DNA of 64,000 bases from Promethearchaeota archaeon (GTDB lineage Archaea; Asgardarchaeota; Lokiarchaeia; Sigynarchaeales; SOKP01), in assembly GCA_019058515.1 (NCBI GenBank), contig JAHPYY010000199.1:24190-88189 (forward strand). The letters run 5' to 3'. The notes below the pieces were generated by a model, which was not told where the DNA came from, did not search any database, and was given only the letters and a program-made list of their open reading frames with translations. This document shows, piece by piece, positions 2,143 through 64,000 of this stretch (positions are counted from its first letter, which is position 1; the number at the start of each line of letters is the position of its first letter). The translations under genes and the position numbers were made by a program.

Positions 2143-3693
2143 ATGGCTTCGAATATAATAGGAACACCCATTATAATAGACATTGGTAGCGCTTATGTAA
2201 AAATAGGTTATGCTGGAGAAACTAATCCACGTTTTTGTTTTCCCTGTATAACTGGTACCGAAAAATATAAAGCAGTTATGTACGATGTTGAAGCTAGAAA
2301 CATATATGTTGGAGATGATGCCGAAAAACTAAGAGGAGTGCTAAAAGTCAACTATCCAATACAACGTGGTGTTATCATGGACTGGAACGACTACTACGAA
2401 ATTTTAAACCACATATTCTATTCTCTTTTGCGATTAAACAACGTTTCTGGACATCCTGTTTTGTATATAGAATCCCCTTATGTTCCAGCTGAAACAAAGG
2501 AATATATCGCAAGAGTTTTATACGAAACTCATGGAGCACAATATTTGATTATGATACCCTCTCCCATATTATCTTGCTTTTCGGTAGGGTTGTCTACAGG
2601 TTTAGTTGTAGAGAGTGGAGATGGAACGACATGGGTTACTCCTATAATCGATGGTCAAATGAACTATCAAGCGATTCAGAGAGTAAATTTAGCAGGAATG
2701 GATATTAGTAATAGTTTAAAATCTTTAATGATGCGAGAAGGAATAAATATTGCTTCATCAGCGGTAGAAGAAATTATTCGCGAAATAAAAGAGAGAAACT
2801 GCTACTATGTAATTGATCCAACTGATCGCCCTCCACATTCACATGATCAATATTCTTATTCCCTACCCGACGGGTCTACCGTAAATATTCCCACTCATAT
2901 TCTTCACGAAGCCCCAGAAATTCTATTTAATCCAAGTTCTTTTGGCTCAAGTTCTCCGAGTATTCCACAAGCGGTAATCAACTGCCTGCAGAGTGTAGAT
3001 AAAAGTTATTGGGGAGATCTTATTTCACAGTTGGTTCTTTCCGGAGGAAATTTCTCCCATCCAGGTCTTGAAGAGCGATTTAAATATGAATTAAACCACC
3101 ACCTTCCCCAACTTGGTAAAATTCCTATTGTATCAAACAAAAAAGCTACTAAATCTAAAAAAAATGAAAAGGAAATTAAAGGTGAAACTAAAAAGTTAAA
3201 AGACATGGAGATAACTCCCAAAACTAAGGATACATGTCCTGAATGTGGAGAACTCGTAGAATTAGAACCTGGAAAGGATCTATGTCCTAATTGTGGAGCT
3301 AAAATGAAACTAACTCAACTCAAGATTAATTTAACTAAAAAAGGATCAGAAAAGAAAAAGAGCACGCTCTTATGCTCGAATTGTGGGAAAGCTATAGAGG
3401 ACGAAAGCTCAATTTTTTGTCCGTTTTGTGGAAGTAATTTAGAACACCTAGACGAGGGTGAAAGCGGAAGAACAAAACTCTCAGATACATCATCCAGCCA
3501 GAATGGAACTAAAACCTCCGATGATCCAATAAAACTCTTGAAATTTTTTATACCCTCAAATCTACAATTCGCAACCTTCAGTGGTGCAGCTATTCTCGCG
3601 AGCCTACCATCCTTTCAACAACTATTTATATCTCATGAAGAATTTCTATCAGATCCCAATTTGATATATAGAGATATAAGTCAAATTTTTTAA
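2143..3693 (+). CDS. Actin-family protein with inserted double zinc ribbon
   Basis: This 516-residue protein is an actin/actin-related homologue. Phosphate-1 loop: IIDIGSAYVKIGYAGE from residue 11. Phosphate-2 loop: ESGDG at 158-162. Adenosine loop: LSGGNFSHPGLEERF at ~299-313. C-terminal actin segment: FSGAAILASLPSFQQLFIS at ~479-497. Residues ~330-460 are an insertion, lying where actin goes from the helix after the adenosine loop to the C-terminal segment. It holds a lysine-rich linker and two CxxC pairs of zinc ribbons (C365/C368 with C381/C384, and C411/C414 with C426/C429). By alignment to muscle actin, catalytic Q137 corresponds to Ser140 and H161 to Trp164. D154 is Glu and D157 is kept. 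Nucleotide binding is therefore likely, but hydrolysis may be altered. It differs from a canonical lokiactin and is better called an Asgard actin-related protein. Confidence 0.9.
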   Translation: MASNIIGTPIIIDIGSAYVKIGYAGETNPRFCFPCITGTEKYKAVMYDVEARNIYVGDDAEKLRGVLKVNYPIQRGVIMDWNDYYEILNHIFYSLLRLNNVSGHPVLYIESPYVPAETKEYIARVLYETHGAQYLIMIPSPILSCFSVGLSTGLVVESGDGTTWVTPIIDGQMNYQAIQRVNLAGMDISNSLKSLMMREGINIASSAVEEIIREIKERNCYYVIDPTDRPPHSHDQYSYSLPDGSTVNIPTHILHEAPEILFNPSSFGSSSPSIPQAVINCLQSVDKSYWGDLISQLVLSGGNFSHPGLEERFKYELNHHLPQLGKIPIVSNKKATKSKKNEKEIKGETKKLKDMEITPKTKDTCPECGELVELEPGKDLCPNCGAKMKLTQLKINLTKKGSEKKKSTLLCSNCGKAIEDESSIFCPFCGSNLEHLDEGESGRTKLSDTSSSQNGTKTSDDPIKLLKFFIPSNLQFATFSGAAILASLPSFQQLFISHEEFLSDPNLIYRDISQIF

Positions 3694-3805: not shown

Positions 3806-4912
3806 TTGAAAAGAAGATCACATTCAGTAATAACTATAACGCTCATCTGTTTGTTAGTAATTTCCGTAATTCCTTTAGGGTTAGCTAAAACCCGACAAAA
3901 TTACATAATTCAGTTTGTCAAGTCAACTCAACTCGATGAATTTAACGGATTTTCGAATTCTGTGATTGATAAAGAAGAAGTATCTTTCGAAGCGACAGCA
4001 GTAGCCTTAGAAATAATAGACCACTACAAAATACCCGAGTTGGAATTAAACATATCAAAAATCACAGCTAACTTAACTATGAAATTAGATCTTGCTTTTA
4101 ACCAGAGCAACATTGATATTTATAAGCTTTCTCACGCTTTAAAAGCTTTTTCATATCTTGATTACAATTTTACATCCATCTTGGAAAATAAAATAAATAC
4201 ATATCTTAACAAAACCTATCAATCAATTGGAGGATTCTCTCCAACTAATAGTTCTACTCAAATTAGCATGGCATCCACATTCTATGCAATCGAATGTTAT
4301 AGATTTATTAATAAATCAATACCAGAACCAGAGTTAATTAAGAACTGGACATTGGATTGCCTTAACCTAGATGGAGGATATGGTGGAAACTCAACATTAT
4401 CCTCAGCAATAAGCAATACATACTTTGCGATTAATATTTTAAATTTACTTGGATACCAAAGTGAGATTCAAAATAAATCTAAAACCATTGAATATCTAAA
4501 ATCCTTCTATTTTGATGAGATTGCTGATGATGTAAACTATGGTGGCTTTTTACCTAATGATGCTTCTAAAGATACACAGTTGAGTAGTACATATTTTTGT
4601 GTTCAGACTCTTGCTAACTTAAGCGAAATTATCGATAATAAGGATGATATCATTAGCTGGGTTTTGAAAAGACAAAACTACAGAGACGGGGGATTCTCTG
4701 ACATTAAGGACGGAAATATTATAGACTACTCGTCAATGAGCGCAACTTATTACGCGTTTGAAATTCTTAAAACTCTTAATCCCAATTTAGAACAGTTAAA
4801 TGAGGATGTATTTGCTGCAGAATTTAATTGGTGGATATTAATAATATTGTTCATAGTTATTGGAGCTGTGGTCGTTGTAGGATATTTTATATGGCGTCGC
4901 AGACAATTATAA
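3806..4912 (+). CDS. Secreted, C-terminally anchored alpha/alpha-toroid (prenyltransferase-like) protein
   Basis: This is a 368-residue protein. Residues 1-28 form a signal peptide (basic start, then a hydrophobic run ending LGLAKT). Repeats with the GGF/GGY motif of the prenyltransferase/squalene-cyclase toroid follow (for example GGFSPTNSSTQ, DGGYGGNSTLSSA, YGGFLPNDAS, DGGFSDIKDG), each followed by a Y-x-A-helix. A C-terminal membrane helix (~339-362) ends in RRRQL. The domain would sit outside the cell, tethered to the membrane. The catalytic residues of prenyltransferases or cyclases are not evident, so a binding or scaffolding role is possible. The start is TTG at 3806; no better ATG precedes the signal peptide. 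Confidence 0.72.
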   Translation: MKRRSHSVITITLICLLVISVIPLGLAKTRQNYIIQFVKSTQLDEFNGFSNSVIDKEEVSFEATAVALEIIDHYKIPELELNISKITANLTMKLDLAFNQSNIDIYKLSHALKAFSYLDYNFTSILENKINTYLNKTYQSIGGFSPTNSSTQISMASTFYAIECYRFINKSIPEPELIKNWTLDCLNLDGGYGGNSTLSSAISNTYFAINILNLLGYQSEIQNKSKTIEYLKSFYFDEIADDVNYGGFLPNDASKDTQLSSTYFCVQTLANLSEIIDNKDDIISWVLKRQNYRDGGFSDIKDGNIIDYSSMSATYYAFEILKTLNPNLEQLNEDVFAAEFNWWILIILFIVIGAVVVVGYFIWRRRQL

Positions 4913-5969: not shown

Positions 5970-6422
5970 ATGGCAATTTTGGAAATCGGAATTAATCTAG
6001 GGAATCGAAATCTTCTAGAAATCAAGTATTATGGATCATCTGAACAATTAGACCCTAATTTGAGAGCAAGCTTCCTTTCTGCTTTAGAGAGTTTTACTTC
6101 TGAGGTTTTTGGAGACGACATAAATGTGGTATCACTTGCATCGTATAAACTAGTTTGTTATAGCGAACCAGTATCTTTACCATCTGAAGATAAAGATAAT
6201 AAAGAACCACTACTCCATTATGCCATTGTAGAAAAAGGTACCGATGTTGATGTAGTTAAAGATCATTTAAAGGAAATACACCTTCATTTTCTTAACAGAT
6301 TTCCTTTAAATTATATCTTTTCGAAGAAGAAAAAGTATTTTAAGCAATTTTATCCTAGAATAGATGATATTTTAGGGGATCTTAAACTTAAAACGGAAGA
6401 CAGATTTAGATCAATTTTTTAA
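5970..6422 (+). CDS. Longin/roadblock-like small protein
   Basis: This is a 150-residue protein of predicted alpha/beta order. A strand region (LLEIKYYG) leads to a helix with DPNLRASFLSALESF (~28-42), more strands (VVSLASYKLVCYS and LLHYAIVEKG) and a helix (VVKDHLKEIHLHFLNRF). The order and several residues match the domain after the transmembrane helix of the giant protein at 56146, where the segment is YGTEEIDPELIGGFLSAVSSF. The pattern fits longin/roadblock-type folds, which act with small GTPases in eukaryotes; that assignment is by pattern, not proven. Its stop is only 24 bp before the GTPase start, in the same frame, so the two are likely co-translated. Confidence 0.6.
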   Translation: MAILEIGINLGNRNLLEIKYYGSSEQLDPNLRASFLSALESFTSEVFGDDINVVSLASYKLVCYSEPVSLPSEDKDNKEPLLHYAIVEKGTDVDVVKDHLKEIHLHFLNRFPLNYIFSKKKKYFKQFYPRIDDILGDLKLKTEDRFRSIF

Positions 6423-6446: not shown

Positions 6447-7628
6447 CTGAGTTCTAACATTGGTCCAGAAGCGCAAGCGGCTTATCAAAAATATCTTGAC
6501 GCTTCTACTCTTTCTGAAAAGATTAAAAAGTTAGAGGATTTTTTATCTTTAGTTCCTAAACATAAAGCAACAGAGAAAATCGTTGCTTTAAATAGATCAA
6601 GACTCGCAAAACTTAAACGCGAACTTGAAGAAAAAAGACAGAAACTTAAAAGCGGTAAAACTGTAAGTCCCTTTTCGATAAAAAAAGAAGGCATTCAAAT
6701 AATTTTAATTAGTCAATACCACACACCAGGAGTAGGAAAGACTTCACTACTTAATATGCTGACAGGTGCAGCAAAGGATAAAATTGGCAAATTTACTGAA
6801 TTGCCTGAGATTGGAATTTATAATTACGAGCAAATTAGATTCCAAATTGTTGACATGCCAGCATTAATGGAAGATGCAGCTTTAGGTGTGGGAAATGGAA
6901 AGGAAATTTTAGCACAAATTCGTGCATGCGATCTCCTATGTTTATGCATCGATTTGTCGAGAGATTATCACTCTCAAATGAGTATGTTATTAGAAGAGCT
7001 AACAAAAGCAGATATTAGGATCAATGTGCCACCTCCTCCAATTGAGATTCAAAAAACTGGTTCGAATAAAATACAAGTATTTTTTCTAACAAAAGAAGCT
7101 CAAGAATACATGTACCTTACCGAAGAGATTAAGGAAATAATTAGAGAAACAGGGATTAGAAACGCTATAGTAAAAGTATACGGAAGGATTAATTTAGATC
7201 AAGTTATAGACGTTATAAGCCCCTCGATGGTATATTTAGATACTATTATTTTCGGGACTAAAGGAGATTTGTCTCATACAGAAAATAGCTTTCTAGAACT
7301 ACAACAAGCATATTCCGATAAATTTCCGATTATCATAGGTATTAGTATCCCAAAAAAAGAATTTCCAACTAATTTTGGGGAAATCGTACTCAATTTTCTA
7401 AAAAAAATAAAAGTTTTTACTATGAACGCGGGAAGAGTAGCAGAGAAACCTCTTGTGATGGATGAAAATTGCACCGTTAAGGATGTGGCTCTTAGAGTCC
7501 ATAAAAGCTTCTATGAATTATTTGATTATGCGATTGTTATACGGGAAAGTGCAAAACAGAGAAAAAAAAGAGTGGGCATTGACTATGTGTTGAATGATAA
7601 CGATATAATCGAGCTTCATTCCATTTAG
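6447..7628 (+). CDS. DRG/OBG-like GTPase with TGS domain, non-ATG start
   Basis: This is a 393-residue DRG-type GTPase: an N-terminal coiled region (~10-75), the G domain, and a C-terminal TGS domain (last ~75 residues, starting near VMDENCTVKDVALRVHKSF). The first ATG is at 6756, but the frame is open from just after the upstream stop (6420-6422). It encodes the N-terminal helices and the P-loop HTPGVGKT (residues 92-99). No ATG, GTG or TTG precedes the P-loop. CTG at 6447 follows a Shine-Dalgarno-like GAGGT at 6434-6438 with an 8-nt spacer. G1 has His in place of the first Gly, G3 is DMPA in place of DxxG, and G4 is TKGD. GTP handling may therefore be atypical. DRG proteins associate with ribosomes or RNA. 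Confidence 0.8.
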   Translation: MSSNIGPEAQAAYQKYLDASTLSEKIKKLEDFLSLVPKHKATEKIVALNRSRLAKLKRELEEKRQKLKSGKTVSPFSIKKEGIQIILISQYHTPGVGKTSLLNMLTGAAKDKIGKFTELPEIGIYNYEQIRFQIVDMPALMEDAALGVGNGKEILAQIRACDLLCLCIDLSRDYHSQMSMLLEELTKADIRINVPPPPIEIQKTGSNKIQVFFLTKEAQEYMYLTEEIKEIIRETGIRNAIVKVYGRINLDQVIDVISPSMVYLDTIIFGTKGDLSHTENSFLELQQAYSDKFPIIIGISIPKKEFPTNFGEIVLNFLKKIKVFTMNAGRVAEKPLVMDENCTVKDVALRVHKSFYELFDYAIVIRESAKQRKKRVGIDYVLNDNDIIELHSI

Positions 7629-55937: not shown

Positions 55938-56145
55938 TTCTTATTTTTAAATGGTATACAAGTTTATATACAAATATTTTTATATTCTTTTTATAACTGC
56001 AAGTTAGGTTTGCTTTATTTGTGATCGTCTCTAACGCAATACTGAGATAATATAAAGTTTATAAGTACTTTAAAGAAGAATATTAATTATAATATCACTT
56101 TTGTTAGTATTAATTAAAACTCAATAAAATTCGTTGGTTAAGAAT

Positions 56146-59100
56146 ATGTTAGAATCTCAAAGAGATAGGAAATTATATATTGGTATTATTATAACTCTAA
56201 TGTTTATGATTATTGGCGTAAATTTGCTATCAATTGAAAATACTTCACCTAATCCATTACTTGACGAAAAAGTGGATGAACCATCTAATCCATTTGACAT
56301 ATTTGACGAAAATAACCAATTAAAATCTTCAGATTATTCAACTGATTTTAACGGTACTGGAGACCAAACAAGCATTACTCTCCACCAATCTTATCATAAC
56401 ATTTCCTTTAACACGATTGTAAATACATCAATTGTGAATGGAAACAATTTTACAGTACCATGCCCGAACGATGCGAATTTTAATTCAAGCTATTTGTTAT
56501 TCAATATTACTGATATTACAGCACCTAATAAGATTATAATATATGAAGATGATGGATCTAATGGAGACTCACTTTGGAGTGATACACATGCCAGTTCCTT
56601 TAATATCACTGGTTCAGGGAATTTAGATAATGTTTCCGTATATCTTAATAATCCAACTGATGGGTTAACTTCTAAAATCGATCTCTTATTATTCACATCC
56701 AAATGGGTTGATGGTAAAAGCGAGCCAGATACTCAATATGGAAGCGACCTAGTCGTTGATGATGAAGTAACGGATTTTCTAGGATGGTATAATTTTACTA
56801 ATCTTGATACTTTTTTGAATGTTTCAAAAACAGAGAACAATACTTTTTTCATAGCATTAAGGTGTGATGATGTTGATATAACATATTGGGGTTGGGATTA
56901 CGATGGAAGTGGTTTATCTCAAGATGGGAAAAATGATACTATATGTTATGACAGAGACGGACCTACAACTTGGACATTAATTGAATATGATGTATTTGGT
57001 AAAGATTATGGAATTGACTTTAAACTTAAATGTGATTTTACTCCTATAAATTCAACCCCAAATCCCGAAGATATTAATTTAAGATTTAATAACAAAACAA
57101 TAAAAGGCTATTCTAATGTTAATGGAACAGGATATTGGCAATATAATCTTGTAAATGGAAGTGACTCAGGTGCATTAAATTACAATATAACTGCAGATTG
57201 GTGGGATGTAGAATGCAATATCTCTCAAGTTCAAGTAAATTATACTAAAACTAACCTTAAAGCTGAGACCAATTTTGATGTACCTTCAAGTGGAGCCAAT
57301 GTAGACTGGAACAGTACAATTACCGTTACCGATTTTGATGCAGATATAGCTAATGACACTTATCTTAATTTTACAGTACCTTCGTTTTGGGACACTAATT
57401 ACAAAATATACAATGGAACTAATGATGATCTTACATCGTCTTCCTCATATTGGGATTTGGGAAATGGATATATGCATATCCAGGTTAAAGACGCATACAA
57501 CGATACTTGGATCCTAAGTACACAATCCAACAATAGCATTAACTCAATCGATATGGATGTTGAAGGTATTCCTATTGTTGGTCAAAGCGTTAATTTCACT
57601 AATAAATTGCATTTCAACGCAACTATGAACGCTACTATTAATGATGATGTTGGAGATTTTAATATAAGCGTATTTAGCCCCGATTCATTTGGAAACACCT
57701 TAAATTTTACAGAATTGAATCAATCATTTACGGGGGGAATAGATATCTCAATTTTGAATTGGACGATTAAGAATAATGTTACTGAGTACGGCACTTTCAA
57801 GGTACAAATGTGGTGGAAAAACGGAACCTCTGTGGGATTTCGAGAAGTACCACTTACAATTTTAGGAAATACATATCTCTATTTGAAGGATCCACAAGAA
57901 GATCAAATTTTTAATTCGACAGACACCATTGAAATAAGCGTTCAATTTAACGATACGGGGTGGAGTCCAGAAAAGAATTTAACTGGTGCCACAGTGAGAT
58001 ACAAAATTAACGAAGGAGCTTTCAGTAGCGATAATGAGGATACAGTAGAATATTCAAATGGGATATATAATATCACTCTTGATTGCGATAAAGCAGGCTT
58101 TGTAAATCCAGGTATTAATAATGTAACAGTAGAATTATCCAAATCTTATTATAATAATTATACAAGAACTTTTAACTATGTTTTTCTGAATGAAACAACG
58201 GCAGCTTATACTAAAGAAGCTGGGTGGACCTTCGATGCTGATGACACCTTTAACATCACCGTACAATTTACAGATAAAATATCAACAGATGAAATACAGA
58301 ATGCTGATCTAACGGTCTGGGTAGGCACCACGGATTACACCTCGAACGCCAAGACGTCGTACCGAGCGGGAGGATACTACGACATCGAGTACAACCTTTC
58401 TCACTCAGAGTTCAGCAACTACGGGAACTTCTCGCTGAGTGTGGATGTTAACAAAACCTATTACAACAACGCCACAGGGGGATACAACATTAAGGTATTA
58501 GCAGCGACCACAGCAGCATATAGTAAAGAAGCAGGGTGGACCTTCGACGCTGACGACACCTTTAACATCACCGTACAGTACACGGATGACTTTTTAGGTG
58601 AAATATCAGACGCCGATCTAACGGTCTGGGTAGGTACCACGGATTACACCTCGAACGCCAAGACATCGTACCGAGCGGGAGGGTATTACGACATCGAGTA
58701 TAACCTTTCTCACTCAGAGTTCAGCAACTACGGGAACTTCTCGCTAAGTGTGGATGTGAACAAGACCAATCACAACAACGCCACGGGGGGATATGACATT
58801 AAGGTCTTGGGAGTGACAACTGCAATTTTCACTAATACTACTGGAGAAAAATTTTCATTTAAGTCTAGTGATCCTTTAAGAATAATAACTTCCTATAGCG
58901 ACGATGTACAATCATCTGGTATCTCAAATGCTAAAATAACGGCATGGGTAAACAATTCCTTAAATAATTACAACTACACTGCAAACGCCACAATAACAAC
59001 AGGAGCTCCAGGTTATTATTATACTGATTTCGAATTTATAGATTGGGAATTTGAAGGGTATGGGGAATTTACATTAAATGTAGAGATAAACAAAACAAAT

Positions 59101-62100
59101 TACTATAACCATTCTTATTCAGTAAATATTTTTGTTGGAGGTCCGAGTGCTGCGTCTTGTGATAAAGAACCGGATAAAGCTATTTATAATTCTAACGAAA
59201 TACTAAATTTAAGCATATCCTATAATGACACAGTAAAGATGGAGGGTATTGAAGATGCTAATATTTCTGTATATGTTAATAATAGAGCTAATCAGTACAC
59301 TGGTTTTGAATCGTTTCCGTATGGAAACGGATATTACAATGTGTCAGTTAATTTCACGGACAGTATATTTGATGGATACGGTCCGTTTAGTCTCATAGTT
59401 GATATTAATCAAACTAATTACGATAATTACACAATAATAAAGGATATCATAGTATATGGTGTAACATCTCCTTCATTTTCCAAAGAACCCAACTTGGTTT
59501 ATTTTAATTCTGGAGATACGCTTAACATCAGCGTTTATTACGAGGATACGGCAAAAACGCCAACTCAGGGAATTTCCGGAGCCGATGTTTATGTTTATGT
59601 AAATGAAAGAATCCCACAACAGTTATATACAGGATCTTCACCATTTGATTATGGTGACGGCAATTACAATATCACCATCGATTTTACTGACTCTTTATTT
59701 AACGGTTATGGTTCATTCAACCTTATTGTTGATGTAAATAAAACATACTACTATAATCACACTAGTGCCTTACTTAACATCGATATTACAGGTGAAATCT
59801 CAGAATTGTTTTTAAAAGATCCAGATCAAACTATATTCGATTCTGATGAAATTCTAACAGTTATAGCAAATTACGATGATTCTGAGAAAACTAGTCCCAT
59901 ATCAAACGCTAAAATAACTGTTTGGGTAAATAATTCTCTGAACACCTATAACTACACTAATAATGCAACCATCAATTATATATCAGGTAATTATGAAATT
60001 GGTTTTACTTTTACTGATTGGGAATTTCGCGGTTACGGTCCGTTTACGATTAAAGTGGAAGTAAATAAAACCAACTACGAAAACGCTACTTATACTGATG
60101 ACATATTTATTTTTGGAACAACTTCCTTCAATCTAATCTCGCCTAGTAATTATAGCTCGTTCATGGACGGTTCGGTTTTCAATATAACAGTACAGTTTGT
60201 AGACGATTCGATAAATACGCCTGTTCAGGAGGAAGCTACATTTAATTATACCACTCTAGGTGCATCTAATCAAGTAGATAATAAAATCTATTTAGGAAAT
60301 GGTATGTACAACTTAACCGTTTTCGTGAATGACGCTAATTTCACAAGCAAGTTTGGATTAGTGAATGTTACAATTGATATCTCAAAGCAATACTATAGAA
60401 ATAAGACAATGGTATTTGTATTTGATAGGCAGATTCAAACTACGATCTCTCCGAACACTATTTATACTCTACCCGATACATTTAGAGGTGATACTGTCAT
60501 ATTCACTTTTAATTACTCGGATTCGATGGGATTTCCAATTTTAGGAGCAAATTGGGCGACCATTGGTTCAGACAGCGGATTAAATCCAATCTTTGATGAG
60601 ATCAGTAATGGAAATTACACAATAACATTGAATACCTTAGGTTTAGATGTAGGCACATATAACTATGTGTTTAATATTTCTGCTACGGGCAACGAAACGC
60701 AGGTGATTTCACTAACTTTAACAATACTTCCTGCGGAGACTAATCTACAATTAGATTCATATGTTCCAACAATACCACTGTATACTGGTGCAAATCAAAC
60801 GATTGTATTTAGAATAAATGACAGTACCACAGACCAACCCTTGCTTTTCCTTACAACTAGTAGTATAACTGTGACTGATTCAAATGGTAATCCTTGGTTA
60901 AGAGGGACAGGAAACCATAATTGGACGTTATATGATTTCAATGGTGATGGAAATTATACTCTGCATATAAGTACAACCGGTTTAGGTGTGGGAACATATA
61001 CAGTTGTAATTTACATTAATCCAGGAACTAATTATGCAACATTCCAATTGTCAATATCTTTTACCATTAGAGGAAGTTATATGTCTGCGAATTTGATAAG
61101 TGTTGAAGGTCCAGATGGTGTTATTTCATCATTAAGCGAGGACATCTATAATTACACAACATTTATTGGTTCCGATATTACGCTTTCATTTAATTTAACT
61201 GAAGATGAGTTTGGAGATGCCCCAATTTTAGGTGGTGCTACTTATTCCATTACTTATGTAAATTTATTAAACTCCTCGGATACAGGAACAATTCTCAACG
61301 ATCTTAGTTTTGAATCCATAAACGAGAGTTACGGGTATCACAGTGGCATTTTAAACCTTTCTCATTCATTAAACGAACTTGGTTCATATCAATTAACCAT
61401 TAAAATTTCTAAATCTAACTACGTAAACACATCGTTCACAATTTATCTCAATATTGTAGAAAAAATCGAAGCAAGGATAGAACTATATAATGTACCTTCA
61501 GAAGTCACAGCTGGGCAAGAATTTATTATTCAATTTAGAGTATTCTATAAAAATGGTTCGGAATGGCTTCCACTAGCAGGGGCGGAGGTGGAATTAATAA
61601 CTAATTTAACCCTCAAAACAGGAGCAATATTTTCCAATTCCACGGACGAATCAGGAATCGTATCGTTTTCATTAGTAATTCCATCTGATGCAGAGAATTT
61701 TTCAATATCCGTCAACCTTGGCTCAAGTTACAAATTTGTAAGCGAACCAATCGAGATTTCCAATATAATATTAATATTTGCCAGTGTGATTGCGATAGAA
61801 ACTATAATTTTAATATTAATATTAATTGGATCAGTTTCAGCAGCTTCAGTTGGCGGTGTGGCTGTCAATAAATTTGTAATAGCACCTAAAAAACGAGAAA
61901 AACGCAGAGTACTAACGGAAGTTAAAACGGTATTTGAGGACGCAATTAACTTAGAGCACATTTTGGTACTTTATAAAGGAACGGGTACATGTATATTTTT
62001 CAAGTCGTATGGCACAGAGGAAATCGATCCAGAGTTAATCGGAGGTTTCTTATCAGCAGTGTCCTCGTTTGGTAGGGAAATGGTTGCTCAGGAGGCGTTG

Positions 62101-64000
62101 AATGAAATCAGTTACGGAGATAAAATGCTCTTACTTGCAGATGGTACATATATCCGAGTTGCGTTAGTATTATCAAAACAAGCTTCTATGATCTTACGCG
62201 CTCATCTAAAGGAGTTTATCGAAGCTTTTGAAAAGAAATACCAGGAAAATCTTCCAAAATGGAGAGGACAACTTAAATTCTTTAGAGACGCAGGAGAATT
62301 AGTAGATAGCATTTTAAATACCTCGGTTATTTTACCCCACGAATTAAAGTATGTAACCTCTGACATCAAGAAACTTAAAAAACCTCAATCTAAAGAACTT
62401 TTAAAAATAGCTAATGATTTGCTACAATCATCTGGTCGAAAATTTTTCTTTCTAGCTACATTGCTAAACGAAGCAATTGAAAAAGTAGGAAAAGGAACCG
62501 CAGAAATATTCATGGGAATAAAAGAATTAAAGGACACAGAGATCCTGAAACCAATTGATATATCAGCTATAGAACAAGTTCCAGTTTCGCAGCAAGAGGT
62601 CAATCTCATAACCCAAAAAGTTAGCGAATTAACAAGTTTGGCCGAAGAGGAGAAACAAAAAGTTGTACAAGATTTAATAAAAATGAACCCTTCGGAAAGA
62701 GAAATTTACCTCTCAAGTTTAACAGAGCAAGAAGAGATAGTCACCGCCCCCATTGAATCGAGAGTCGGAACTGCGACTATTAAAGACATAAAATCTGCTA
62801 AAAAAGCTATAAAGAAATTTAAGAACAAGGGCAAACAATTCACTAAAAAGAAGATCTACGATTATGCCAAAGAGAATTACCAAAACGCTCAGAAAGTAGC
62901 TGCAGATTGGGAGTTAAAAAAGGATTTTGACGAGATTGACGAGGAACTTCGATTGCTTTACAAGGTTGAACTCGATGAGACTCTAAAAATACGCGAAATC
63001 GATGCCAATAAGGCAATCAAAGATTCTAATTTTGATCTTGCTGAAGAGAAATACAAGGAGGCAATCACAGTTGCGAATGATATTTTCAAGCTTGGATTCG
63101 ATGAAATGACAGGTAAAATCGATGAACTAAAGAAAAAATTGAATGAAATATCCATTTATAAAGGTGAAGAAGGGGTACCATCAATTTCTAAAGCACCTGT
63201 TGGAGAAGAAATGGTAGAAGAACCCTCTCAAGAAATCCCAGAGACTTACGACGCTAAAGCTGCAAAAGTTGATATAAGAGAAATTAGAAAAGAAGCAATG
63301 TCAGCAAGAAAGGATAAAAATTACAGTAAAGCAATCGAGTTAAACGAAAAAGCACTGAGTATAGCTAAAAAATGGGAAGTGTCTGATCAAATTTACGAGA
63401 TAAACGAAGAAATTAGAAAAATCTCTCTTGAAGAATTAAGCGCTAGATTAAAAGATGTAAATAAGGACGCAAACAATGAGTTTAAGGGAAAAAATTACGA
63501 AGCTGCTAACAAACTATTCTTAGAAGCCGCATCCATCGCTTCAGAAATGTTTAAGCAAGGAGTGGCAGAGATGGATTCAGAAGTGAAGAAATACACTAAT
63601 AAAGCGAACGAGTGTAAGAAAATATTAGAAGAAGAGAAAGAACCAAAGGAAAAGAAACCTAAAGCTGAAGAAAAGCCCAAAAAATTCAAAGAAAAGCCAA
63701 TAGCAGAACCTGAAGAAGGGGACATTATTGTAAAGGACGCTAAAACTGCTAAAAAAGAAATCAAGATCCTTAGAAAAAACGCCCACAACGCTAGAAAGAA
63801 GCAAGAATTCTCAAAAGCATCTGAATTTTACCAGAGCGCTGTCAAGTTGGCAAAAGTGTGGGAGATCTCCGATATATTACCCGAACTTGAAAATCAAATT
63901 CGATTGAGTCTTATTGAAGATTTACAAATACAACTAAAAGACGCTGAAAGTAACGCGCAAAAAGCGGAGAAGCAACAAATTTACCCTGAAGCGTACGAAA
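56146..64000 (+). CDS. Giant surface protein, Ig-like repeat ectodomain, TM, longin-like and helical tail (partial)
   Basis: From ATG 56146 the frame is open to the window edge (2,618 codons so far, no stop). Layout: an N-terminal membrane helix or signal anchor (~10-29); an Asn/Thr-rich beta-type ectodomain (~35-1870) with about eight ~105-residue repeats between 57865 and 60430, each holding SKEPN-like starts, I-S-V and D-A-x-V-x-V-x-V patterns; a membrane helix (~1873-1905); a basic stop-transfer (KKREKRR); a longin/roadblock-like domain (~1935-2033); and a charged helical tail with at least three related repeats (QLAKEE/KAIELNEKALSI type). Glycosylation sites (N-x-S/T) are dense. It is probably an adhesin or S-layer-type protein with an internal signalling end. 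The C-terminus is missing. Confidence 0.85.
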   Translation, partial: MLESQRDRKLYIGIIITLMFMIIGVNLLSIENTSPNPLLDEKVDEPSNPFDIFDENNQLKSSDYSTDFNGTGDQTSITLHQSYHNISFNTIVNTSIVNGNNFTVPCPNDANFNSSYLLFNITDITAPNKIIIYEDDGSNGDSLWSDTHASSFNITGSGNLDNVSVYLNNPTDGLTSKIDLLLFTSKWVDGKSEPDTQYGSDLVVDDEVTDFLGWYNFTNLDTFLNVSKTENNTFFIALRCDDVDITYWGWDYDGSGLSQDGKNDTICYDRDGPTTWTLIEYDVFGKDYGIDFKLKCDFTPINSTPNPEDINLRFNNKTIKGYSNVNGTGYWQYNLVNGSDSGALNYNITADWWDVECNISQVQVNYTKTNLKAETNFDVPSSGANVDWNSTITVTDFDADIANDTYLNFTVPSFWDTNYKIYNGTNDDLTSSSSYWDLGNGYMHIQVKDAYNDTWILSTQSNNSINSIDMDVEGIPIVGQSVNFTNKLHFNATMNATINDDVGDFNISVFSPDSFGNTLNFTELNQSFTGGIDISILNWTIKNNVTEYGTFKVQMWWKNGTSVGFREVPLTILGNTYLYLKDPQEDQIFNSTDTIEISVQFNDTGWSPEKNLTGATVRYKINEGAFSSDNEDTVEYSNGIYNITLDCDKAGFVNPGINNVTVELSKSYYNNYTRTFNYVFLNETTAAYTKEAGWTFDADDTFNITVQFTDKISTDEIQNADLTVWVGTTDYTSNAKTSYRAGGYYDIEYNLSHSEFSNYGNFSLSVDVNKTYYNNATGGYNIKVLAATTAAYSKEAGWTFDADDTFNITVQYTDDFLGEISDADLTVWVGTTDYTSNAKTSYRAGGYYDIEYNLSHSEFSNYGNFSLSVDVNKTNHNNATGGYDIKVLGVTTAIFTNTTGEKFSFKSSDPLRIITSYSDDVQSSGISNAKITAWVNNSLNNYNYTANATITTGAPGYYYTDFEFIDWEFEGYGEFTLNVEINKTNYYNHSYSVNIFVGGPSAASCDKEPDKAIYNSNEILNLSISYNDTVKMEGIEDANISVYVNNRANQYTGFESFPYGNGYYNVSVNFTDSIFDGYGPFSLIVDINQTNYDNYTIIKDIIVYGVTSPSFSKEPNLVYFNSGDTLNISVYYEDTAKTPTQGISGADVYVYVNERIPQQLYTGSSPFDYGDGNYNITIDFTDSLFNGYGSFNLIVDVNKTYYYNHTSALLNIDITGEISELFLKDPDQTIFDSDEILTVIANYDDSEKTSPISNAKITVWVNNSLNTYNYTNNATINYISGNYEIGFTFTDWEFRGYGPFTIKVEVNKTNYENATYTDDIFIFGTTSFNLISPSNYSSFMDGSVFNITVQFVDDSINTPVQEEATFNYTTLGASNQVDNKIYLGNGMYNLTVFVNDANFTSKFGLVNVTIDISKQYYRNKTMVFVFDRQIQTTISPNTIYTLPDTFRGDTVIFTFNYSDSMGFPILGANWATIGSDSGLNPIFDEISNGNYTITLNTLGLDVGTYNYVFNISATGNETQVISLTLTILPAETNLQLDSYVPTIPLYTGANQTIVFRINDSTTDQPLLFLTTSSITVTDSNGNPWLRGTGNHNWTLYDFNGDGNYTLHISTTGLGVGTYTVVIYINPGTNYATFQLSISFTIRGSYMSANLISVEGPDGVISSLSEDIYNYTTFIGSDITLSFNLTEDEFGDAPILGGATYSITYVNLLNSSDTGTILNDLSFESINESYGYHSGILNLSHSLNELGSYQLTIKISKSNYVNTSFTIYLNIVEKIEARIELYNVPSEVTAGQEFIIQFRVFYKNGSEWLPLAGAEVELITNLTLKTGAIFSNSTDESGIVSFSLVIPSDAENFSISVNLGSSYKFVSEPIEISNIILIFASVIAIETIILILILIGSVSAASVGGVAVNKFVIAPKKREKRRVLTEVKTVFEDAINLEHILVLYKGTGTCIFFKSYGTEEIDPELIGGFLSAVSSFGREMVAQEALNEISYGDKMLLLADGTYIRVALVLSKQASMILRAHLKEFIEAFEKKYQENLPKWRGQLKFFRDAGELVDSILNTSVILPHELKYVTSDIKKLKKPQSKELLKIANDLLQSSGRKFFFLATLLNEAIEKVGKGTAEIFMGIKELKDTEILKPIDISAIEQVPVSQQEVNLITQKVSELTSLAEEEKQKVVQDLIKMNPSEREIYLSSLTEQEEIVTAPIESRVGTATIKDIKSAKKAIKKFKNKGKQFTKKKIYDYAKENYQNAQKVAADWELKKDFDEIDEELRLLYKVELDETLKIREIDANKAIKDSNFDLAEEKYKEAITVANDIFKLGFDEMTGKIDELKKKLNEISIYKGEEGVPSISKAPVGEEMVEEPSQEIPETYDAKAAKVDIREIRKEAMSARKDKNYSKAIELNEKALSIAKKWEVSDQIYEINEEIRKISLEELSARLKDVNKDANNEFKGKNYEAANKLFLEAASIASEMFKQGVAEMDSEVKKYTNKANECKKILEEEKEPKEKKPKAEEKPKKFKEKPIAEPEEGDIIVKDAKTAKKEIKILRKNAHNARKKQEFSKASEFYQSAVKLAKVWEISDILPELENQIRLSLIEDLQIQLKDAESNAQKAEKQQIYPEAYE
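58201..58821 (+). repeat. Near-identical tandem repeat within the giant protein gene
   Basis: Two units (58201-58512 and 58513-58821; about 312 and 309 bp, 104 and 103 codons) are almost identical in DNA, including the silent positions in the core. They are noticeably richer in G+C than the flanking repeats (codons AAC, ACC, GCC, TAC instead of AAT, ACT, GCT, TAT). Neighbouring units of the ectodomain repeat are diverged. This indicates a recent duplication or gene conversion. Confidence 0.85.

What the first reader, a model, noticed from the sequence alone, without database searches (positions are those of the whole stretch)
5970..6422. The same longin-like domain in a small protein and behind the TM of a giant surface protein
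The small protein (residues ~20-42) and the giant protein (~1955-1975, encoded near 62010) share YG-x-E-x-DP-x-L, FLSA and SF at matching spacing, then the same strand/helix order. One copy sits next to a DRG-like GTPase gene, the other just inside the membrane of a giant ectodomain protein. This could be a receptor-type use of a fold that in eukaryotes pairs with small GTPases.
Basis: partly seen in the sequence, partly recalled or inferred. Interest (0 to 1): 0.75.

Follow-up and report, generated by a model that had tools for sequence, protein, structure and literature searches.

The report
Membrane receptors with cytoplasmic longin domains

Summary
The 150-aa protein (5970-6422) and the segment just inside the membrane of the giant protein (about 61945-62328) are homologous (BLASTP 2e-6; profile-profile 1.4e-7). 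Both are predicted to have the eukaryotic longin fold (VAMP7, Sec22b, TRAPPC4, Fuzzy). A profile of the wider family finds Bet5 and MON1 in the PDB by sequence alone. The two are not a close pair. The small protein groups with soluble longins; a divergent DRG-type GTPase gene follows it in 35 of 35 lokiarchaeal loci. The giant groups with membrane-anchored longins: single-pass proteins (N-out ectodomain, one TM, longin directly behind it) and polytopic proteins with a C-terminal longin. The family occurs in 145 of 148 Asgard genomes searched. Lokiarchaeal longins, some fused to Arf-like GTPases, were already in print; I found no description of longins on transmembrane ectodomain proteins or transporters in the held library. 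The receptor anatomy follows from sequence and prediction. GTPase regulation by the membrane-bound longins is inferred only, and no small-GTPase gene consistently accompanies the receptors.

The parts
5970..6422 (+). Small soluble longin protein, 150 aa
6051..6095 (+). Helix-1 signature DPNLRASFLSALESF of the small longin
   Evidence: sequence; conserved in alignment A1
6447..7628 (+). Divergent DRG-type GTPase (MMR_HSR1, MMR_HSR1_Xtn, TGS), CTG start
   Evidence: follows the small longin in 35 of 35 loci
2143..3693 (+). Actin-family protein with C-terminal zinc ribbons, in the conserved gene row that leads to the small longin
   Evidence: Pfam actin 8e-72; gene order
3806..4912 (+). Prenyltransferase-type alpha-toroid protein with a C-terminal hydrophobic segment
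   Evidence: Pfam 2e-19; hydrophobic segment read from sequence; gene order
56134..63999 (+). Giant single-pass surface protein (2622 aa in the window, open at the window end; a near-identical relative, P0122, ends 37 aa further)
56179..56235 (+). N-terminal hydrophobic segment (taken as signal peptide), residues 16-34
   Evidence: hydropathy
56236..61764 (+). Repetitive ectodomain, residues 35-1877, 99 N-x-S/T sequons
61765..61821 (+). Transmembrane segment, residues 1878-1896, followed by a K/R-rich stretch
   Evidence: hydropathy
61945..62328 (+). Cytoplasmic longin domain of the giant
   Evidence: AlphaFold model mean pLDDT 78.8; aligned to solved longins over model residues 24-151
62026..62070 (+). 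Helix-1 signature DPELIGGFLSAVSSF of the giant longin
   Evidence: sequence; alignment A2
62401..63999 (+). Cytoplasmic tail; repeats read by eye as helical, weakly TPR-like (Pfam TPR_1 E 0.48, not significant)

Best explanation
Asgard archaea carry an expanded longin family that divides into a mostly soluble and a mostly membrane-anchored side. Supported by sequence and prediction: the giant is on the membrane-anchored side and has an N-out ectodomain, one TM and a longin directly on the inner face of the membrane. The same layout recurs in other Asgard genomes, and sister proteins put the longin at the C-terminus of proteins with 4-12 hydrophobic segments. The small protein is a soluble longin encoded with a divergent DRG-type GTPase. 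Inferred: the membrane-bound longins act as fixed docking platforms, alone or paired with soluble longins, that recruit or regulate Arf/Rag/Rab-like GTPases in response to what the ectodomain or transporter part senses or binds. Inferred: the small longin is the dedicated partner of the DRG-type GTPase and is not the receptor's partner.
For: Homology and fold. Family profile hits solved longins by sequence (Bet5 4.9e-7, MON1 1.5e-4, TRAPPC1 2e-4). Pfam longin models match some members (PF13774 5 of 40, PF19036 4 of 40 at E 0.01 or better). Five of 36 family members scanned carry an Arf-type GTPase domain in the same chain (L135, L136, L140, L144, L219); L219 is hit by the small-protein profile and by the giant-domain profile. 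One member carries a weak V4R match. Membrane layout: K/R after the TM exceeds K/R before it in 107 of 107 giants evaluated of 112 found, sequons 4.5 against 0.43 per 100 aa; 42 of 50 distinct domains have a single TM directly upstream by a strict rule. Inventory of three genomes: 54 distinct proteins, 36 soluble, 10 polytopic, 5 single-pass, 3 other TM layouts. Tree: membrane-anchored against soluble, 92/87. Longin-GTPase pair in 35 of 35 lokiarchaeal loci, 34 of them within 176 nt, and in L220 and L221 at 38% GTPase identity. A second small-longin paralog lies beside the polytopic longin gene in 5 of 7 loci looked at.
Against: No GTPase gene consistently travels with the single-pass genes: a loose motif screen of 36 fetched loci flagged 5 ORFs, of which only one was put through Pfam (L115, Ras-like); the conserved neighbours tested are an ATP-grasp, a Rad51-type and a phosphoglycerate-mutase-type protein. 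The DRG-type GTPase is not a small GTPase and lacks the first P-loop glycine. In 20 loci with more distant or second small longins the DRG-type gene is present in only 5. The profile A2, weighted to single-pass proteins, finds no longin in Pfam or the PDB by sequence; the link needs the wider family or the predicted fold. The Pfam longin matches looked at one by one (L135, L144, L219) lie below the curated cut-offs. Longins also serve as adaptor-binding domains in eukaryotes. No complex was modelled or measured. The soluble/membrane split is not in the tool's strong class, and two proteins without TM (L117, L120) fall on the membrane side.
Confidence: 0.55

Rival explanations
1. The membrane-bound longin is a sorting or adaptor tag: it binds coat-, ESCRT- or adaptin-like proteins, or a peptide, so that the surface protein is placed or internalised, with no direct GTPase regulation.
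For: Solved longins that match well include adaptor-bound ones (VAMP7 with Hrb or AP-3 delta-adaptin, Sec22b with Sec23/24). An Asgard ESCRT study reports longins together with Vps28-C and adaptin appendage domains (PMC11188069, passages seen).
Against: By sequence the family is closest to Bet5 and MON1, which belong to Rab exchange factors (recalled for MON1; TRAPP role in PMC10933270 passages), and five members carry an Arf-type GTPase domain.
Confidence: 0.23
2. The longin is only a dimerisation module that pairs two surface proteins or anchors them to a soluble longin; it carries no regulated output.
For: The central-helix region is the dimer element in the related roadblock fold (PMC10933270, passages seen), and helix 1 is, with strand 5, the best conserved element here.
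Against: Ten polytopic and five single-pass proteins use it in three genomes, a broad use for a bare dimeriser; this is a weak argument.
Confidence: 0.17
3. The resemblance is a chance motif match between unrelated folds.
For: Pairwise identity is only 25%, and neither segment matches a longin model in Pfam on its own.
Confidence: 0.02
4. For the small protein alone: it works with the DRG-type GTPase on ribosomes or translation, and has nothing to do with membranes.
For: DRG family GTPases act on ribosomes in eukaryotes (recalled); the pair is close and conserved; the small protein has no predicted TM.
Against: A second small-longin paralog sits beside a polytopic membrane longin in 5 of 7 loci.
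Confidence: 0.45

Closest known systems
Eukaryotic longins of Rab exchange factors (Bet5/TRAPPC1, Trs23/TRAPPC4, MON1, FUZ)
   Same: Same predicted fold and, for the family profile A4, sequence similarity to Bet5, MON1 and TRAPPC1
   Different: Those are not integral membrane proteins (recalled); here the domain follows the TM of a giant surface protein or ends a multi-pass protein
Longin SNAREs (VAMP7, Sec22b, Ykt6)
   Different: SNAREs have the longin at the N-terminus, then a SNARE motif, then in VAMP7 and Sec22b a C-terminal TM (recalled); here the order is ectodomain-TM-longin and no SNARE model was listed in the Pfam scans
Longins already reported in Lokiarchaeum (41 domains, five fused to Arf-like GTPases; PMC4917890, passages seen)
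   Same: Same kind of domain and same kind of fusion; this family probably overlaps with that count
   Different: The passages seen describe no transmembrane or ectodomain longin proteins
Roadblock/MglB platforms
   Different: Their alignments end at model residue 123-129, before the last helix (139-147) that the longin alignments include
DRG GTPases
   Same: MMR_HSR1, MMR_HSR1_Xtn (40 bits, cut-off 35.2) and TGS domains
   Different: P-loop and G3 motifs diverge; a better-scoring PF16897 protein exists elsewhere in four of seven genomes checked

Membership tests
Longin domain | Order b-b-a-b-b-b-a-a with two helices after the last strand | tested here: met
   predicted models; small; giant: (alignments to longins run to model residue 151)
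Longin domain | Sequence-profile match to known longins | tested here: met
   Met for the family profile A4 and at E 0.01 for 5 of 40 members with PF13774 and 4 of 40 with PF19036. Not met by the small protein or the giant segment alone, nor by profiles A1 and A2 alone
Longin domain | Domain at the protein's N-terminus, as in classical longins (recalled) | tested here: not met
   Met by the small protein and by 29 of 54 inventory proteins; not met by the giant nor by the 5 single-pass and 10 polytopic proteins. A feature of placement, not of the fold; the giant is not called a classical longin protein
Longin domain | Dimer platform that binds a small GTPase | not testable with these tools
   No complex modelling or binding data; GTPase fusions in relatives are indirect
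Roadblock/LC7 | N-terminal helix and a single C-terminal helix | tested here: inconclusive
   The giant's model has an N-terminal helix (residues 4-25) but also the extra C-terminal helix; roadblock chains align over fewer residues
Longin SNARE | SNARE motif after the longin and C-terminal TM | tested here: not met
   No SNARE-motif model listed in the Pfam scans of the giant and of 15 related membrane or long proteins; TM lies before the longin
DRG GTPase (neighbour) | MMR_HSR1_Xtn and TGS domains (DRG-type combination, recalled) | tested here: met
DRG GTPase (neighbour) | Canonical GxxxxGK[ST] P-loop | tested here: not met
   first glycine replaced (YHTPGVGKTS in the window), so 'divergent DRG-type' is the claim
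Rab exchange factor (TRAPP or Mon1-Ccz1 type) | Nucleotide exchange on a Rab-type GTPase | not testable with these tools
   -

The most novel reading that the evidence does not exclude
Asgard archaea possess a class of cell-surface receptors and transporter-like proteins that signal by a membrane-fixed longin acting directly on Arf/Rag/Rab-like GTPases: a single-protein link from ectodomain to GTPase switch that predates eukaryotic exchange-factor complexes, and next to whose soluble sister longins the eukaryotic Rab exchange-factor longins arose.
Probability: 0.4. Interest if true: 0.92.

Novelty: new variant of a known kind. Interest (0 to 1): 0.72.

Why it matters
A 2016 review (PMC4917890, passages seen) held that 41 longin-like domains in Lokiarchaeum do not by themselves indicate a trafficking role, since longins can regulate Rag GTPases without touching a membrane and no SNARE domain was found. 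A large branch of longins built into the cytoplasmic face of membrane proteins, present in many Asgard genomes, changes that: it gives named, testable membrane positions for longin function, and it offers the many Asgard small GTPases (109 counted in Lokiarchaeum according to the same review) candidate membrane partners.

Tried and rejected
Pfam on the two segments alone: nothing useful; the weak GSH-S_ATP hit (12 of 31 A2 members, best E 0.0012; 16.5 bits for the giant segment, cut-off 23) is taken as chance since the predicted fold is a longin. PDB sequence search with single sequences, A1 or A2: no longin listed. NCBIfam: nothing for either segment except a glutathione-synthase hit far below its cut-off.

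Looked for a small-GTPase gene near the membrane-longin genes: a loose motif screen of 36 loci (most with a single-pass gene; L079, L116 and L118 have a polytopic one, L117 a soluble one; L069/L112 and L079/L116 overlap) flagged 5 ORFs, of which only L115's was put through Pfam (Ras-like). Clusters of neighbours: Rad51-type (8 loci, one member tested), ATP-grasp (6 loci, one tested), phosphoglycerate-mutase type (5 loci, three tested). They look unrelated. Considered the small and giant domains as a matched pair: not borne out by the tree. Considered roadblock instead of longin: see membership test.

Distribution outside Asgard could not be tested widely: PF19036 rings in 0 of 14 control genomes, and among the 112 giants every source name that gives an organism is Asgard, many having no name and one being a subsurface-metagenome entry. 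The A2 profile is weighted to single-pass proteins, so the inventory understates soluble longins. In one search at most 23 candidates per genome were scored. The 60 loci are best hits of two searches and so lean to single-pass proteins. Of the 58 places fetched for the inventory, 55 gave an ORF that passed the filter; L151, L160 and L167 were dropped.

Literature searches for longins with TM or ectodomain in Asgard archaea. Papers seen as passages only: PMC10933270, PMC11188069, PMC9834061, PMC11291895, PMC4917890, PMC7997004, PMC6141808, PMC5847659. One paper asked for by DOI is not held, so its content is unknown to me.

Full report
WHAT WAS CHECKED. The window comes from a lokiarchaeal-type genome: the nearest named relatives of the small protein are mostly Candidatus Lokiarchaeota or Promethearchaeota, and the gene order around it matches 35 contigs labelled Lokiarchaeota or Lokiarchaeia. 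No whole genome is held for it. The small ORF 5970-6422 (150 aa) and the giant ORF 56134-63999 (open at the window end, 2622 aa in the window) are as described. A near-identical giant (P0122, 99% over the region searched) ends 37 residues beyond the window end.

THE SIMILARITY IS REAL. Two-sequence BLASTP gives E 2e-6 over 126 columns at 25% identity. Smith-Waterman 78 is reached by 0 of 2000 shuffles of the domain (maximum 71) and 0 of 20000 in a second run (maximum 66). Offering the whole giant puts the match at residues 1932-2077. Alignments of relatives of each (A1, 34 rows; A2, 31 rows) compared by hhalign give E 1.4e-7. Each profile finds the other gene as the only other convincing ORF of the window. 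The shared signature is DPxLxxGFLSAxxSF.

A FAMILY, NOT A PAIR. Searching the giant's domain in 18 lokiarchaeal genomes (18 of the 35 loci were used as handles) found copies in all 18, 10 to 37 each at E 0.01. The A2 profile matched 145 of 148 genomes of the phylum at E 0.001. The A1 profile matched 47 of 148 at 1e-6, some of these being cross-hits to other family members. In three genomes (G008, G085, G106) I fetched all 58 places that A2 matched. Fifty-five gave an ORF that passed the filter, and these come to 54 distinct proteins: 36 without TM (29 with the domain at the N-terminus), 10 polytopic with a C-terminal domain, 5 single-pass, and 3 with other TM layouts. Five of 36 family members scanned carry an Arf-type GTPase domain in the same chain (L135, L136, L140, L144, L219). 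L219 is matched by A1 (1.1e-9) and A2 (4.8e-18) and thus bridges the two halves of the finding. A profile of 40 members (A4) finds by sequence alone Bet5 (4.9e-7, and 2.5e-6 for a second sequence), MON1 (1.5e-4), TRAPPC1 (2e-4) and, weaker, Trs23 (0.03) among solved structures; rows above E 0.1 in that list also hold unrelated proteins. Single members match Pfam Longin (5 of 40), Fuz_longin_1 (4), Intu_longin_1 (2), Clat_adaptor_s (2) and Sybindin (2) at E 0.01 or better; those looked at one by one (L135, L144, L219) are a little below the curated cut-offs. Fuz_longin_1 itself matches 70 of 99 Asgard genomes (36 with a match above the cut-off) and 0 of 14 control genomes.

THE RECEPTOR LAYOUT. 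Of 112 giants found by the region search, 107 could be evaluated; 5 lacked the motif or a TM in range. In 107 of 107 there are more K/R in the 25 residues after the TM than before it, and N-x-S/T sequons are denser before it (means 4.5 and 0.43 per 100 aa). The window's giant has 99 sequons in 1842 ectodomain residues and 2 in 726 tail residues. So the ectodomain is most likely outside and the longin inside. Among 60 fetched loci with 50 distinct domains, 42 have one TM directly before the domain (gap -1 to 15 residues, K/R after above before in 42 of 42). Four of the six rows labelled 'poly' (L083, L100, L061, L109) also have a TM just before the domain plus one further hydrophobic segment, two (L063, L064) are truly polytopic, and two (L047, L088) show no TM in the ORF. 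Among 12 loci from other Asgard genomes (L206-L217), nine (L206-L211, L213, L214, L216) have a TM within 40 residues before the domain, L212 has one about 110 residues before, and L215 and L217 show none; five of these ORFs are cut by the end of the stretch (L207, L210, L211, L215, L217). TM calls rest on a plain hydropathy scan. Polytopic members show 4 to 12 hydrophobic segments; of the ten, two match MFS transporters in Pfam, one of them below the cut-off, and none of the others matches a credible family. One polytopic type is well conserved (290 proteins found, the 120 listed 67% identical or more over the region).

HOW THE BRANCHES RELATE. A tree of 47 domain rows (46 different) divides them into a membrane-anchored side (12 single-pass, 11 polytopic, 2 without TM) and a soluble side (18 soluble, 4 GTPase fusions), support 92/87, not in the tool's starred class. 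The labels need 5 changes against 23.1 in shuffles. The giant is on the membrane side and the small protein on the soluble side, with a long branch. So the two genes of the finding are distant cousins.

THE SMALL LONGIN AND ITS GTPASE. The row actin-like protein, toroid protein, FolD-like gene (name recalled from sequence), small longin is present in 33 of 35 loci; the other two (L006, L035) begin near the longin. The helicase-like gene (recalled) follows in 33 of 35 (not in L009 and L029, which end soon after the GTPase). The longin-GTPase step is present in 35 of 35, with 7 to 176 nt between them in 34 and 934 nt in one. The loci were found by similarity to the small protein, so they sample its close relatives. 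In 20 further loci with more distant or second small longins (L220-L239) the GTPase gene is there in five: L234-L236 (57% identity) and L220, L221 (38%); in the other 15 it is not. The GTPase has MMR_HSR1, MMR_HSR1_Xtn and TGS domains, a P-loop lacking the first glycine, and DMP and TKGD motifs. Of seven genomes searched with PF16897, G003, G010 and G106 have two matches, G144 has one that is not the longin-linked gene, and G008, G001 and G085 have only the longin-linked one. A second small-longin paralog lies beside the polytopic longin gene in five (G005, G003, G001, G008, G125, the last cut by a contig end) of seven loci looked at, not in G141 or G010.

MECHANISM. Supported: homology, predicted fold, membrane layout, family size, gene pairing. 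Inferred: that the membrane-bound longins are platforms for small GTPases. Reasons for: the nearest sequence relatives with solved structures are Rab exchange-factor subunits; relatives carry GTPase domains in the same chain; the central-helix region is the dimer element in the related roadblock fold (PMC10933270, passages). Reasons against: no consistent GTPase gene partner next to receptor genes; longins elsewhere also bind adaptors. The small longin most likely serves the DRG-type GTPase, which is also an inference.

NOVELTY. Longins in Lokiarchaeum (41 domains, five fused to Arf-like GTPases) and in Asgard genomes in general are in print (PMC4917890, PMC10933270, PMC9834061; passages seen). 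In the held open-access library I found no description of longins behind the TM of ectodomain proteins or at the end of transporters. Most subscription papers are not held, nor are bioRxiv preprints in general, so this is not proof of absence.

CHANGES AFTER CHECKING. Counts for the neighbour screen, the more distant longin-GTPase loci, the inventory and the Pfam cut-offs were made more exact. Since these add results against the reading, the confidence of the best explanation went from 0.58 to 0.55.

Noticed in passing
L122:6808-7875: A 356-aa protein with seven predicted hydrophobic segments and a C-terminal longin; no Pfam family. A seven-TM layout with a GTPase-platform fold at the end deserves its own look.
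   Followed up: partly
L015:7715-8686, L029:7740-8726, L030:7712-8710, L031:7709-8719, L032:7709-8719, minus strand: In these five lokiarchaeal loci a gene of about 330 aa after the DRG-type GTPase has an N-terminal region similar to the giant's longin; L030's has no Pfam match.
   Followed up: partly
window 6447: The GTPase appears to start with CTG, where 34 orthologs have TTG, ATG or GTG; a GTG just upstream is out of frame.
   Followed up: partly
window 2143-3693: Actin-family protein with C-terminal zinc ribbons, in a conserved gene row with the small longin and the GTPase.
   Followed up: no
L139:2947-5460 and L123:7489-10128: Longin-like domains in one chain with RelA/SpoT plus TPR, and with a carbon-nitrogen hydrolase.
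   Followed up: no
G003, G010, G106, G144 against G001, G008, G085: The first four genomes have a better-scoring DRG-type GTPase elsewhere; in the last three only the longin-linked one was found.
   Followed up: partly
L162:7420-8397: A 326-aa protein with an N-terminal longin followed by one hydrophobic segment: the longin-then-TM order of longin SNAREs, without any Pfam match.
   Followed up: partly
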